In this document: piece after piece, positions 7,800 through 47,358 of the stretch | Layout: each line of letters begins with the position of its first letter | How positions within the stretch are numbered: the stretch's first letter is position 1 | From: Lachnospiraceae bacterium | Lineage (GTDB): Bacteria; Bacillota; Clostridia; Lachnospirales; Lachnospiraceae | Length of the DNA: 64,000 bases | Reading direction: 5' to 3' | NCBI GenBank assembly: GCA_028693705.1 | Contig: JAQUUX010000001.1 | Span: 19,999 to 83,998 of the forward strand | Notes under the pieces: generated by a model | What the model was told of the DNA's origin: nothing | The model's input: the letters and a program-made list of their open reading frames with translations, nothing else | The model's database searches: none | Translations under genes and position numbers: made by a program

Positions 7800-8660
7800 A
7801 TGAAAATAGTAGATTTACATGTTCATTCCAACCGTTCTGACGGGAGTATGACTCCCACAGAACTGGTATATTATGCAAAAGAAAAAGGCTTAAGTTCTTT
7901 CGCTCTCACAGACCATGACTGTGTAGAAGGTATTGATGAAGCCTTTGATGCTGCAAAAAGGCTGAAAGAAGAAACCGGCTATGATCTTGAAGTTATCCCG
8001 GGTATGGAATTCTCTACCGATTATCTGGGAAGTGATGTTCACATCGTGGCTCTGGATATTGATTACCATTCTGACACCTTTGTAAACAATATTTCCCGTT
8101 TCCTGGATTCCAGATCACTCAGGAACGAAAAAATGTGTGAAAAACTAAGAGAACGCGGTATAGACATTTCCATGGAACAACTAACCGATGATTTTCCCGA
8201 TGCAGTAATTACCAGAGCTCATTTCGGAAAATACCTGTATCAAAAAGGCTACTGCTTAAGCGTTTCCGATGCGTTCTCCCAATATATCGGAGACCACGCG
8301 CCCTGTTTTGTCAGTCGTGAAAAGGTAACACCCAAGCAGGCAGTAAAACTAACCCGCCTGTGTGGCGGTATCCCTATACTGGCTCATCCTCTCCTCTATG
8401 GCTTCAGTAAGGAAAAGCTGGACACACTGACCGCAGACTTGACAGAGTCCGGCCTGCTTGGATTAGAATGCCTGTACAGTTCCTATACTTTAGCTGATGA
8501 ACATAATATGCGTAAATTAGCCGCCAAATACGATCTAGCCCCCAGCGGTGGATCCGACTTCCATGGAACCACAAAACCCGGACTGGATATGGCCACCGGG
8601 TATGGAAAGCTGTTTATTCCTTACGAGATTCTGGAGCATTTGCGGCAAAAACTGCTTTAA
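7800..8660 (+). CDS. PHP-domain phosphoesterase, RNase AM/YciV-type
   Basis: A 286-residue protein starting MKIVDLHVHSNRSDGS. PHP metal-binding motifs are visible: DLHVHS, TDHDCVEG, an E in GMEFST, the HP of LAHPLLYG and the C-terminal GSDFHG. The family includes E. coli YciV (RNase AM), a 5'-3' exoribonuclease and nucleoside 3',5'-bisphosphate phosphatase, and the whole length fits. An ATG 12 bp earlier (7788) would overlap the ABC-F gene by 8 bp and is also possible. It is probably co-transcribed with the ABC-F gene. Its stop codon forms the left edge of structured repeat A, so any former terminator has been replaced. Confidence 0.88.
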   Translation: MKIVDLHVHSNRSDGSMTPTELVYYAKEKGLSSFALTDHDCVEGIDEAFDAAKRLKEETGYDLEVIPGMEFSTDYLGSDVHIVALDIDYHSDTFVNNISRFLDSRSLRNEKMCEKLRERGIDISMEQLTDDFPDAVITRAHFGKYLYQKGYCLSVSDAFSQYIGDHAPCFVSREKVTPKQAVKLTRLCGGIPILAHPLLYGFSKEKLDTLTADLTESGLLGLECLYSSYTLADEHNMRKLAAKYDLAPSGGSDFHGTTKPGLDMATGYGKLFIPYEILEHLRQKLL

Positions 8661-8690
8661 ACTGCAGTTTAGCAACTTGCAAATACTAAT

Positions 8691-8902
8691 TATAACGAGA
8701 CGGCAATGGTGTGGGTGTGTATCCTTCCATTGCCGCTCACACGTATAAAAGCCACTAAATCATTCCATTTAGATTGCAGTTGCTTACGCTAACGGAACCA
8801 ATCGCCATCCTGGCTCTGAGGTTCCTTTCCGGGCATCCTTGCCCGGAATAGCTGTGGTAACAGCTGGAATGATTAAGTGGCTTTAATACATGTTCACAGG
8901 CA
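8691..8902 (+). ncRNA. Conserved 212-nt core of module 1, copy A
   Basis: This segment matches 32468-32679 with 4 substitutions and no gaps. Its fold includes hairpin CGGCAATGG/CCATTGCCG (8701-8735) with a 17-nt loop, a 17-bp helix 8751-8767 with 8865-8881 (one mismatch) that encloses TTCCGGGC/GCCCGGAA (8827-8848), GGAACC/GGTTCC (8794-8825) and an AGCT/AGCT hairpin near 8850-8865. Just downstream, hairpin ACAGGCA/TGCCTGT (8896-8934) has a loop that can pair with the entire 17-nt loop of the first hairpin. The + strand is inferred from G.U pairs. The RNA role is inferred, not shown. Confidence 0.7.
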
Positions 8903-9142
8903 CTGAAAGGATACATACCCGCACCACTGCCTGTTCGTTACTATTCATATCTCCAAGTTGCTAATCTGCAGTTGACCTGGTCTGTAGCAAGGCTCAGATT
9001 ACGGCAATTAGATGTTTCTACAACCGCCCTAGGTTGATGCCAGGTGTCGCAAAGACACTAGTTACCGCAAGGAAATAATTGCAATAGTCTGGTCTTGGCT
9101 ACAGACCGGGCAACTGCAGATTAAATTGGAATAAAGTACAAA

Positions 9143-9279
9143 GAATGGGACGGCTATATCACTCTGAGAAGCACTTGAACCCCGTCGGCATTTGGCTTGC
9201 GTAATTTGCAAGCCTATGTGCCGCTACGGGGTTCATGTAGCGAAAGCGCGCTTCGATGAGTGATATAGTCGTCCCATTC
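9143..9279 (+). ncRNA. Module 3 hairpin of copy A, covarying with copy B
   Basis: A 137-nt hairpin: a 22-bp outer helix (one G.U, no mismatch) encloses 93 nt with three stacked helices (8, 6 and 7 bp) capped by a 7-nt loop, and a side hairpin with a GAAA tetraloop at 9242-9245. The matching 137 nt in copy B (32873-33009) align without a gap. About a third of the 93 positions and 13 of 22 outer-stem positions differ, yet all these helices remain paired. This pattern is expected of a structure kept by selection. Confidence 0.8.
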
Positions 9280-9309
9280 GGTATACTTAAATCCAATTTA
9301 ACCTGCAGC

Positions 9310-9573
9310 TTATCCTTCTACTATGAGATATCTTCCATCCCCAACTTCAAAAACTTCTGACGCTTCTAAAATACTCTCTTCGTCAGCATCCTCTACATCA
9401 ATGCCTTCTTCCTCAAAGTATTCCAGCACTTCTTTTACGGAATTCACTACAACTGCCATGCAGTCCTCTAAGAATTCTTCTGCTTCTGCTTCATTTTCTG
9501 CTACCTTCTCTGAAAACAGCTGTCCCTGGTGTTTCAGAAAGCATGCAATTACTGCGTCATCATATTCGCCCAT
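9310..9573 (-). CDS. Small acidic conserved hypothetical protein
   Basis: An 87-residue acidic protein (MGEYDDAVIACFLKHQGQLF...) rich in Glu and Asp, with no signal peptide or membrane segment. A strong AAAGGAG site precedes the ATG. It is the last gene of the pheA-ppx-ppk-maf operon and starts 5 bp after the maf stop codon. I recall similar short proteins beside maf in Lachnospiraceae, but no function is known. Its TAA stop codon is part of the right end of structured repeat A. Confidence 0.75.
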   Translation of the reverse strand: MGEYDDAVIACFLKHQGQLFSEKVAENEAEAEEFLEDCMAVVVNSVKEVLEYFEEEGIDVEDADEESILEASEVFEVGDGRYLIVEG

Positions 9574-32431: not shown

Positions 32432-32467
32432 GTTAAACTGCAGTTTAGCAACTTAAAAAATAATGTT

Positions 32468-32679
32468 TATAATGAGACGGCAATGGTGTGGGTGTGTATC
32501 CTTCCATTGCCGCTCACACGTATAAAAGCCACTAAATCATTCCATTTAGATTGCAGCTACTTACGCTAACGGAACCAATCGCCATCCTGGCTCTGAGGTT
32601 CCTTTCCGGGCATCCTTGCCCGGAATAGCTGTGGTAACAGTTGGAATGATTAAGTGGCTTTAATACATGTTCACAGGCA
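32468..32679 (+). ncRNA. Conserved 212-nt core of module 1, copy B
   Basis: Ungapped match to 8691-8902 with 4 substitutions. The first hairpin (CGGCAATGG/CCATTGCCG) and its loop are identical. The later ACAGGCA/TGCCTGT hairpin has a changed loop (ATAGAAGAATACACACCCGC start), which still pairs with the first loop using two G.U pairs and one mismatch. Confidence 0.7.
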
Positions 32680-32872
32680 ATAGAAGAATACACACCCGCA
32701 TCACTGCCTGTTCGTTACATTCATTATTCTTTTCAAGTTGCCAATCTGCAGTTAACCCAGTCTGTAGCCAAGGCCAGACTATTGCAACTATTCATTTGCC
32801 GTAACTGGGGTCTATGCATCACCGGGCATCATAAACTGCAGATTGAAGGAAATACAGATTGCCGTAAAACGA

Positions 32873-33009
32873 GGTTCAGCCGTGTATCGTATGCGAACAA
32901 GCACTGTAAACACGTCTGTACTTAGTTCGCGTCTTATGCGAACTTATGTACAGCTACGTGTTTACCGTAGTGAAAACGGGCTTGTGAGCATATGATACAC
33001 GGCTGAACC
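32873..33009 (+). ncRNA. Module 3 hairpin of copy B, covarying with copy A
   Basis: A 137-nt hairpin of exactly the same length and helix plan as 9143-9279. It has a 22-bp outer stem with one G.U, inner helices of 8, 6 and 7 bp with the 7-nt loop, the conserved AAGC/GCTT pairing and the GAAA tetraloop (32972-32975). Compensatory changes against copy A occur at inner positions 13/70, 16/67, 18/65, 23/58, 25/56, 30/50, 32/48, 34/46 and 77/82 (numbered from 9165 and 32895). Confidence 0.8.
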
Positions 33010-33047
33010 GTCCCTTTACATCAATCCTTATTTCTTTAACCTTCAGT

Positions 33048-33857
33048 TTACTTCTCTTTGGAGAACAGTATCCTATCATTATCCAACTGCGCTCCCACAT
33101 TTTCCTTAAACTTCGTCAGCAGATCATCTACTGTCATCTTTGTTCTTTCTTCTCCATAGATATCCGATACGATCCTTCCGGAATCCATCATCAGTGTTCT
33201 GTTTCCCAGTTCCAGTGCCTGGTGCATGTTATGGGTTACCATAAGGCAGGTAATGCCTCGTTCTGCAATGATATCCTTAGTCAGTTTCAGAACTTTTTCA
33301 GCCGTTGCAGGATCCAATGCTGCGGTATGTTCATCCAGTAACAGGATCTTTGGCGTTACCATAGTTGCCATGAGAAGTGTCAGTGCCTGTCTCTGACCTC
33401 CGGATAATAATCCAACCGGCTGTTTTAACCGGTCTTCCAGCCCCATATCCAATAGTGCCAGCTGTTCTCTGAACTTTTCCTTATCCTTCTTGGACAAACG
33501 GCTGAAGAACTGATGACTCTTTGTTGATGCTCTAAGGTATGCCAGGGTAAGATTTTCTTCTATCGTCATATGCGGAGCAGTTCCCAGTAATGGATCCTGG
33601 AATAAGTGTCCGATCATTTTGCTTCGTTTATATTCCGGTACATAGGTGATATTCTCGTCATCCAGGATAATATCTCCTTCATCTACATAAAAGGAGCCGG
33701 TAATAGCATTAAACATAGTGGATTTTCCTGCACCATTACTACCGATAATGGTTGCAAAATCCCCATTATCCAAATGAAGATTTACGTGACTCAAAGCAGA
33801 TTTTTCATTTACTGTACCCGGATTAAAGGTCTTGGATATATTTTTTAATTCTAACAT
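33048..33857 (-). CDS. ABC transporter ATPase, TrpZ-like
   Basis: A 269-residue single ABC domain: Walker A IGSNGAGKST, Q-loop HLFQDPLLGTAP, signature LLSGGQRQAL, Walker B KILLLDEHTAALDP and H-loop VTHNM. It starts one base after the permease stop side and is the third gene of a binding-protein-permease-ATPase operon. The TrpXYZ assignment follows from the tryptophan T-box upstream and from the partner families. Its TAA stop lies in the right end of structured repeat B. Confidence 0.92.
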   Translation of the reverse strand: MLELKNISKTFNPGTVNEKSALSHVNLHLDNGDFATIIGSNGAGKSTMFNAITGSFYVDEGDIILDDENITYVPEYKRSKMIGHLFQDPLLGTAPHMTIEENLTLAYLRASTKSHQFFSRLSKKDKEKFREQLALLDMGLEDRLKQPVGLLSGGQRQALTLLMATMVTPKILLLDEHTAALDPATAEKVLKLTKDIIAERGITCLMVTHNMHQALELGNRTLMMDSGRIVSDIYGEERTKMTVDDLLTKFKENVGAQLDNDRILFSKEK

Positions 33858-36173: not shown

Positions 36174-36466
36174 ATAAAAAAACCGTCTCAGAACATCTTT
36201 CGATGCTTGAGACGGTAATAAACATTATTATGTCATTATCGCGGTACCACTCAAATTGATTCCAAAGGAATCCACTCTGTCATGTACTACATACACGCCG
36301 GATTGATAACGGGTCCGTACCCGCCAGCTCCTACTATCATCTTCAGGCCAGCCTCAAAAGTCCATTCAACATTATTCCACTGTACTGCATTCCACCAGCC
36401 GCAGCTCTCTGAACAGCTTCACCAATGTCTACTACTCTTTCTCATCGGTTTATCTTTTCAATTCAT
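36174..36466 (-). promoter_or_regulatory. Tryptophan T-box leader
   Basis: On the minus strand the leader has a stem I with AGTAG on the 5' side of the specifier loop and GAA-TGG-A on the 3' side (specifier TGG at 36364-36362), flanked by the helix ACATT/AATGT and the basal AAAG(A)GT/ACTTTT pairing. The T-box sequence GAGTGGTACCGCG is at 36252-36240 and is followed by terminator arms CCGTCTCA/TGAGACGG (36183-36216) and a T-run (36182-36175). Uncharged tRNA-Trp would stabilise the antiterminator and switch on the TrpXYZ-like genes. Confidence 0.93.
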
Positions 36467-47006: not shown

Positions 47007-47358
47007 AAATTAAGCAGATACGTAAGCCGGGTTATGTCGTGAATGATCATCTATCTAGAGCTGTTGTTACCAGCAGCTTCAAGCGACCCACCTGAAAGCA
47101 GGCCGGACAAGCCTATTGCTTTCTTTTTGGTCTTGCTTCGGATGGGGTTTACATGGCTTTGCCTGTTACCAGGCAAACGGTAGTCTCTTACACTGCCTTT
47201 CCACCCTTGCCATTAAAATGGCGGTTTATTTCTGTTGCACTTTCCTTGGAGTCACCTCCACCGGACGTTATCCGGCATCCTGTCCTATGAAGCCCGGACT
47301 TTCCTCACCTGCAGCCTTTCGGCATTCGCAGCCGCGATCATTTGACCTACTTAATTTT
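47007..47358 (-). ncRNA. rnpB: RNase P RNA
   Basis: On the minus strand the conserved GAGGAAAGTCCGGGC element (P4 5' strand region, near 47310), the AGTGCAACAGAAA segment, and the 3' CATAACCCGGCTTACG end are present. The ends AATTAAGTAG and CTGCTTAATT pair as helix P1. Size (about 350 nt) and motifs fit the bacterial RNA component of RNase P, which matures tRNA 5' ends. Exact termini are approximate. Confidence 0.95.

What the first reader, a model, noticed from the sequence alone, without database searches (positions are those of the whole stretch)
9143..9279. Covarying RNA hairpin: module 3 of copy A and copy B has different sequence, same length and structure
Seen directly: 9143-9279 and 32873-33009 are each 137 nt and align without a gap. 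The 22-bp outer helix differs at 13 of 22 positions between copies, yet pairs fully in both (one G.U each). Inside, about a third of 93 positions differ, but helices of 8, 6 and 7 bp all remain paired, with compensatory changes at inner pairs 13/70, 16/67, 18/65, 23/58, 25/56, 30/50, 32/48, 34/46 and 77/82. A GAAA tetraloop, AAGC/GCTT helix, a bulged T and the CTA bulge opposite it are unchanged. Neutral repeats would not keep pairing this way. Inference: a selected structured RNA, of a family I do not recognise.
Basis: partly seen in the sequence, partly recalled or inferred. Interest (0 to 1): 0.93.

Follow-up and report, generated by a model that had tools for sequence, protein, structure and literature searches.

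The report
Scattered bacterial repeats, conserved fold
A repeat of about 137 letters, found at least 77 times in this bacterial genome and in many relatives, keeps the pairing pattern of one branched predicted fold although the letters of its stems change almost freely; it is probably part of a mobile element, and its fold, rather than its sequence, is likely what is recognised when it spreads.

Summary
The two 137-nt hairpins differ at 57 positions; 12 (not 13) of 22 outer pairs differ, all on both sides. They are two of at least 77 copies in this genome. A model from seven copies finds the fold in 22 of 59 other genomes of the family and 0 of 38 other-family genomes of the order. Over 108 distinct matches 96.2% of cells pair; 46 of 54 pairs covary against a tree-aware null. 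Rfam has no match; the neighbouring module is Rfam's TwoAYGGAY.

An RNA gene with its own promoter is not supported: promoter-like sites upstream in 9 of 133 copies, against 18 of 66 genes. Copies are intergenic, and close pairs are head-to-head in 39 of 40 cases. In one relative they are 258-bp elements with 8-base target duplications (8 of 28, control 1 of 756), and their ends also bound an IS66-family transposase.

Best reading: a new REP/BIME/MITE-like mobile repeat family with an elaborate, strand-specific fold, probably selected for propagation. Mobiliser and mechanism are not shown.

The parts
9143..9279 (+). M3 hairpin, copy A: 22-bp outer helix, three-way junction, long arm with CU bulge and UU/UAU internal loop, GNRA (GAAA) hairpin (predicted fold)
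32873..33009 (+). M3 hairpin, copy B, same predicted fold, different helices
9114..9308 (.). M3 of copy A with its extended inverted-repeat arms (59 nt each, 83% complementary), ending in CTGCAG
32832..33049 (.). M3 unit of copy B between two TAAACTGCAGATT-like short repeats
8655..9310 (.). composite element A: modules M1-M2-M3, separated by TAAACTGCAGTTTA-like short palindromes
   Evidence: boundaries read by eye
32434..33049 (.). composite element B: M1, shortened M2, M3
   Evidence: boundaries read by eye
8733..8899 (-). M1 core = Rfam RF01731 TwoAYGGAY (99.6 bits)
32510..32676 (-). M1 core of element B = Rfam RF01731 TwoAYGGAY (99.6 bits)
8976..9110 (.). M2: inverted-repeat module (35-nt arms, 77% complementary)

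Best explanation
M3 is the conserved hairpin body of a family of scattered intergenic repeats in bacteria that named relatives place in the Lachnospiraceae; these repeats are likely non-autonomous mobile elements, their plus strand is predicted to fold into a three-way junction with a GNRA loop, and this fold, as single-stranded DNA or RNA, is likely what a still unidentified mobilising enzyme or host factor recognises when copies are propagated. Shown here: copy number, conserved pairing with near-random stem letters, fixed loop letters, plus-strand preference, intergenic position, head-to-head pairing, and in one relative 8-base target duplications and ends shared with an IS66-family transposase. 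Inferred: that the fold is selected during propagation rather than for a service to the host, and that a protein reads the apical core and the GNRA loop. The enzyme that moves the copies in the window's own genome is unknown; by eye no target duplication was seen there.
For: Copies: 77 in the own genome (99 rows, 150 of 209 candidates scored; 22 rows, opposite-strand shadows and short partials, left out; list); several M3 copies are letter-identical between differing flanks. Fold. Plus-strand folding: G.T 72 v A.C 21 in the outer helix, 54 v 3 and 85 v 2 in two inner helix groups (104 distinct rows, 4 rows dropped); the two neighbour-direction groups do not differ. Mobility: G050 copies share 258-bp boundaries, 8 of 28 have a flanking direct repeat of 8 or more bases against 1 of 756 mismatched flanks, and the same terminal repeats bound a 2.3-kb unit with an IS66-family transposase (PF03050, 64.4 bits). 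G056 shows 10-base duplications at near-symmetric distances at two copies. Selection on propagated lineages: among 27 G050 copies one-sided changes in the outer helix are rare (12 kinds in 13 cells, each in 1 or 2 copies), double changes are shared (7 kinds in 47 cells). Opposed pairs: 39 of 40.
Against: By eye no target duplication at the 12 own-genome copies. In G025, 23 copies have unrelated outer helices (mean arm identity 0.33) yet at most 1 of 21 pairs broken each: selection only at spreading would leave old copies decaying, so a resident function is possible; but these are the best-scoring copies plus neighbours (G025 had 35 matches), so decayed ones are under-seen. In G050 about half of the copies share one-sided mismatches at the base of the long arm (36 cells, 3 kinds), so not every pair is needed to spread. 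In the divergent class G.T and A.C are equal in the outer helix (7 v 7), and two parts of the long arm show no G.T excess (15 v 9, 13 v 22). IS66 and Y1 transposases do not track the element: PF03050 in 8 of 23 genomes with M3 and 22 of 75 without; PF01797 in 12 of 23 and 46 of 75. The G050 IS66 unit carries no M3. Ends differ between genomes, so one transposase cannot explain all.
Confidence: 0.5

Rival explanations
1. M3 is a functional structured RNA that serves the host, made by read-through transcription, and its copies are kept in place for that service.
For: Covariation with fixed loop letters and GNRA loops; unrelated copies in G025 intact among those sampled; more room on the 5' side (5' gap larger in 63 of 80, median 198.5 v 56).
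Against: No promoter signal in the 200 nt upstream: 9 of 133 at p<0.05 (5 of 117 without the divergent class, 4 of 16 in it), against 18 of 66 upstream of ORFs; no U-run after the outermost helix; orientation towards genes free; strand bias also in copies antisense to both neighbours.
Confidence: 0.3
2. The helices are kept perfect by DNA repair: mismatches in long palindromes are copied from the other arm, so pairing needs no selection.
For: Outer-helix letters are near random with few G.T pairs (3.3% of cells; G025 both-sided 3318 v one-sided 64 v one unpaired 128).
Against: Bulge, internal-loop and GNRA letters, which such repair would erase or leave free, are conserved: seven of the nine positions named in the full report at 94-100%, the others at 92.5% and 80%; G.T exceeds A.C on one strand; one-sided mismatches persist among G050 copies.
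Confidence: 0.1
3. M3 is passive cargo carried by unrelated MITEs and has no role in their movement.
For: In G050 it sits inside ends shared with an IS66 unit, and short copies without M3 exist; ends differ between genomes.
Against: The fold is conserved over the 13 genera of the alignment, which passive cargo would not be. The M3-less copies may be deletions made after insertion.
Confidence: 0.1

Closest known systems
REP/BIME elements (GTAG- and CGTC-tagged palindromic repeats; PMC3733652: abstract, passages, first part of the text and the sections on CGTC families and REP dimers seen)
   Same: High-copy, intergenic, between unidirectional or convergent genes, pairs in opposite orientation, hairpins, no coding capacity
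   Different: REPs are 20-40 bp with an unpaired GTAG or CGTC tag; M3 is about 137-150 nt with a three-way junction and GNRA loop; the CGTC of the M3 core is paired; no tracking of Y1 transposases
Bacterial MITEs (RUP, NEMIS, Bcr1, ERIC as listed in PMC3733652)
   Same: In G050: terminal inverted repeats, 8-base target duplication, no ORF, ends shared with a transposase gene
   Different: The covarying core is shared by elements whose ends differ between genomes; no target duplication seen in the own genome
BOX elements of Streptococcus pneumoniae (recalled; PMC3049150 seen only as a search listing)
   Same: Modular, intergenic, structured repeats
   Different: Sequence and fold not compared here
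Rfam RF01731 TwoAYGGAY
   Same: Adjacent module M1 of the same composite elements; also multi-copy
   Different: M3 does not match it

Membership tests
MITE | terminal inverted repeats, no coding capacity | tested here: met
MITE | target-site duplication | tested here: inconclusive
   met in relative G050 (8 of 28 v 1 of 756) and at two G056 copies; not seen by eye in the own genome
MITE | ends shared with an autonomous element | tested here: inconclusive
   met in G050 (IS66-family); no partner known for the own genome, which has no PF03050 hit
REP (GTAG/CGTC) | 20-40 bp palindrome | tested here: not met
   137-150 nt with a branch
REP (GTAG/CGTC) | unpaired GTAG or CGTC tag at one end | tested here: not met
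   CGTC in the core is paired in the consensus; a 3' GTCC tail was seen by eye only
REP (GTAG/CGTC) | RAYT (Y1) transposase association | tested here: not met
   Y1 hit in 12 of 23 genomes with M3 and 46 of 75 without; none in G000. By the cited paper this association is a mark of GTAG, not of CGTC repeats
REP (GTAG/CGTC) | opposed dimers, intergenic | tested here: met
   39 of 40 adjacent pairs head-to-head; 1 of 105 inside an ORF, 0 of 56
structured non-coding RNA | covarying secondary structure | tested here: met
structured non-coding RNA | transcribed | not testable with these tools
   only indirect: no promoter signal
any Rfam 15 family | covariance-model match | tested here: not met
   no match for M3 copy A up to E=10, none for either window copy at gathering scores, none at the M3 places of 13 loci from 12 other genomes at E<=1

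The most novel reading that the evidence does not exclude
M3 defines a new class of mobile element in which a strand-specific, GNRA-capped three-way-junction fold, and not an end sequence, is the signal for spreading; the fold passes between elements with unrelated ends and different transposases and has reached hundreds of copies in some bacteria.
Probability: 0.2. Interest if true: 0.88.

Novelty: new variant of a known kind. Interest (0 to 1): 0.68.

Why it matters
It is a high-copy element without a match in Rfam and not seen in my paper searches; its covariation is strong enough to fix a secondary structure from sequence alone. Because some genomes carry many unrelated, intact copies and another a burst with target duplications, it can test whether bacterial repeats keep a fold for their own spread or for the host. 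It also shows that the Rfam motif TwoAYGGAY is a multi-copy module of such composites in this genome, so its listing as cis-regulatory deserves review.

Tried and rejected
Known RNA: Rfam at gathering scores on the window, at E<=10 on element A, at E<=1 on 13 loci of other genomes: only TwoAYGGAY (M1) in the elements, nothing for M3. Phage-borne element: exact core patterns in viral contigs, 0 hits twice; exact patterns miss most copies, so this is weak evidence. Archaeal copies: two exact pattern hits in a Desulfurococcales MAG have no model match at E<=0.001, so probably chance. Own-promoter RNA: not supported at this sensitivity. A conserved 20-nt leader in G016 first looked like a -10 box but shows no -35 and no fixed last T. 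Intrinsic terminator: no U-run. IS66 or Y1 transposase as the general mobiliser: no co-occurrence. General direct-repeat scan of 91 flank pairs from 12 other genomes: 36 of 91 reach 8 bases, against 32% of 540 mismatched pairs; 11 of 91 reach 10, against about 3%; but only a few, in G056 and G050, lie at matching distances on both sides, and I took only those. Arms made afresh at each insertion: rejected for G050, where copies share arms.

Full report
Observation. The two 137-nt stretches are as described, with one correction: 12, not 13, of the 22 outer pairs differ; all 12 are changed on both sides and each copy has one G.T pair. Overall 57 of 137 positions differ, 33 of the inner 93. RNA folds have z-scores of -14.4 and -12.1; 0 of 200 shuffles fold as well in either case; the plus strand folds better than the minus strand (-90.7 v -81.4 and -82.1 v -73.9 kcal/mol).

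Setting. M3 is the third module of a composite element. Module 1 is Rfam's TwoAYGGAY on the minus strand (99.6 bits in both elements); module 2 is another inverted repeat; the modules are separated by TAAACTGCAGTTTA-like short palindromes. Both window copies lie between convergent ORFs.

Copies. DNA searches of the own genome found many partial and full copies of M1 and M3. A covariance model from seven copies (R1) gave 99 rows in the own genome, with 150 of 209 candidates scored. I left out 22 rows (opposite-strand shadows and short partials) and kept 77 (one of them is cut by a contig end). Among 98 genomes of the relatives set, 23 have a match, the own genome included: 22 of 59 other genomes of the same family and 0 of 38 from other families of the order (stricter filters, at most 33 candidates scored per genome). 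In a draw of 398 genomes of the phylum with a second model (R2), 5 match: 4 in the family, own included, and one outside the class (only 8 candidates scored per genome, so copies may be missed). Among named records, model matches lie in four Lachnospiraceae MAGs (L061, L063, L065, L066); I call the family Lachnospiraceae on that basis. G016 is extreme: 131 matches, with 150 of 1111 candidates scored. In the first 20 kb of ten G016 contigs not chosen for M3 there are 25 matches in 200 kb (counted), which would extrapolate to roughly 400 copies.

Structure. A3 holds 109 matches (108 distinct) from 13 genomes. 96.2% of 5662 cells form standard pairs (shuffles 58.3%, slid structures 32.0-40.1%); 53 of 54 pairs have double changes; covariation score 0.924 v 0.217; the number of further pair types is not above shuffles. 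A3 is fitted to the model, which leans towards the structure, and contains three opposite-strand shadows; later counts on A3 drop these and one more row (L206 minus), which turned out to be a real copy. A null built on a FastTree tree with Fitch substitutions, after the R-scape idea, on 97 distinct rows and 20 simulations gives 46 of 54 pairs at E<=0.05; of 51 significant column pairs 46 are proposed pairs, 3 lie next to one and 2 do not. Most of the eight that fail lie in the long arm's conserved part. Fixed letters: internal loop T 107 of 108, T 104 of 106, T 104 of 107, A 99 of 107; bulge C 85 of 106, T 104 of 106; GNRA G 99 of 105 and final A 105 of 105; junction T 103 of 108. The outer helix has no fixed letters and pairs in 97.7% of cells.

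Which strand, RNA or DNA. G.T exceeds A.C on the plus strand: 72 v 21 in the outer helix, 54 v 3 and 85 v 2 in two inner groups; two parts of the long arm show no such excess (15 v 9, 13 v 22). The 85 include a conserved G.T pair that closes the apical loop. In the outer helix the counts are 32 v 11 in copies antisense to both neighbours, 27 v 4 in copies sense to both, 16 v 6 convergent and 7 v 7 divergent; antisense against sense right-hand neighbours, Fisher p 1.0. So the plus strand folds, and this is not set by the direction in which neighbours are transcribed. Promoter-like pairs were scored against shuffles: M3 upstream 9 of 133 at p<0.05 (antisense strand 10 of 133), ORF upstream 18 of 66 (antisense 5 of 66); the divergent class alone is higher (4 of 16 sense, 5 of 16 antisense). 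No U-run follows the outermost helix. An own-promoter RNA is therefore unlikely; read-through RNA and single-stranded DNA remain. That GNRA-type loops are also stable in DNA is recalled, not tested.

Position. In 105 copies of 13 genomes the gene configurations are mixed (tandem opposite 33, tandem same 27, convergent 17, divergent 15, edge 13; one copy inside an ORF). Without the own genome, the 5' side has more room than the 3' side in 63 of 80 copies (median 198.5 v 56); G016 shows the same trend. I have no firm explanation for this polarity. Neighbouring copies less than 900 bp apart are head-to-head in 39 of 40 cases: own genome 16 of 17 (one tandem), other genomes 9 of 9, G016 14 of 14. 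Several own-genome pairs are copies of one composite, so the events are fewer.

Mobility. In G050 a 258-bp element with ends GTTACT...AGTAAC recurs at about 40 places (40 of 108 candidates scored). Of 28 copies examined, 8 have a shared flank word of 8 or more bases and 12 of 7 or more, against 1 and 3 of 756 mismatched pairs (flanks). A pattern search for the terminal repeat found 110 matches and none for the reversed control. One pair of repeats, 2.3 kb apart, bounds a 581-aa IS66-family transposase (PF03050, 64.4 bits) and a 100-aa ORF; this unit has no M3 (best 18.9 bits, on a 52-nt hairpin). That IS66-family elements make 8-bp duplications is recalled. Short copies without M3 exist, one with CTCAGACC on both sides; they may be deletions after insertion. 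In G056 two copies show 10-base duplications at near-symmetric distances, and a third less symmetrically. In the own genome the 12 copies show no duplication by eye, although M3 letters are identical at several loci with different flanks. Across genomes IS66 and Y1 genes do not track M3.

What keeps the fold. In G050, 27 copies (one of 28 dropped) show one-sided changes in the outer helix in 1 or 2 copies each (13 cells, 12 kinds) and double changes shared by more (47 cells, 7 kinds). Mismatched copies seem not to become parents there, and mismatches are not quickly corrected, which speaks against repair as the sole cause. Against this, about half of the copies share one-sided mismatches at three pairs at the base of the long arm (36 cells). 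In G025 23 copies share only 0.33 of outer-arm letters, near random, yet none has more than one broken pair of 21; they are the best-scoring places plus neighbours of 35 matches, so decayed copies are under-seen. This favours either a resident function or slow conservative movement.

Literature. Searches: TwoAYGGAY, Lachnospiraceae with repeat terms, IS66/MITE terms, BOX/bcr1 terms. None of the titles and abstracts listed described this element; the library lacks most subscription papers. PMC2864571 was seen in two passages: TwoAYGGAY is listed for human gut, gamma-Proteobacteria and Clostridiales. PMC3733652 was seen in abstract, passages, the first of eight parts and two sections.

Noticed in passing
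8733-8899 and 32510-32676 (minus): TwoAYGGAY (RF01731) is multi-copy: all 25 scored of 93 candidates in the own genome match, and 10 of 96 genomes (own included) have a match, 9 over the cut-off, with up to 25 scored copies each. It looks like a mobile-repeat module rather than a cis-regulator.
   Followed up: partly
L042 around 1355-1491 (G000:C160) and the matching region about 19.2 kb away: An M3 hairpin nested inside another M3-type outer helix, present twice on one contig (the second read from coordinates only).
   Followed up: partly
L032-L038: A composite (M3, M2, M3 head-to-head) recurs at several loci; L035 has a different M3 core inside the same outer helix, and L033 lost most of one core, so cores seem exchangeable.
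   Followed up: partly
L290-L309 (G016): A conserved leader of about 20 nt (near TAGAACAGCCAACAAACTA) directly 5' of M3.
   Followed up: partly
L162-L215: By eye, M3 is often bounded by ...CA before the outer helix and GTCC(G/C) after it, in several genera.
   Followed up: no
L227 (G050): One element is flanked by a direct repeat of about 16 bases instead of 8.
   Followed up: no
L313, L317 (G457): M3 matches in a genome outside the class; possible horizontal transfer.
   Followed up: no
36205-36454 (minus) and 47007-47353 (minus): T-box leader (117.9 bits) and RNase P RNA class A (313 bits).
   Followed up: no
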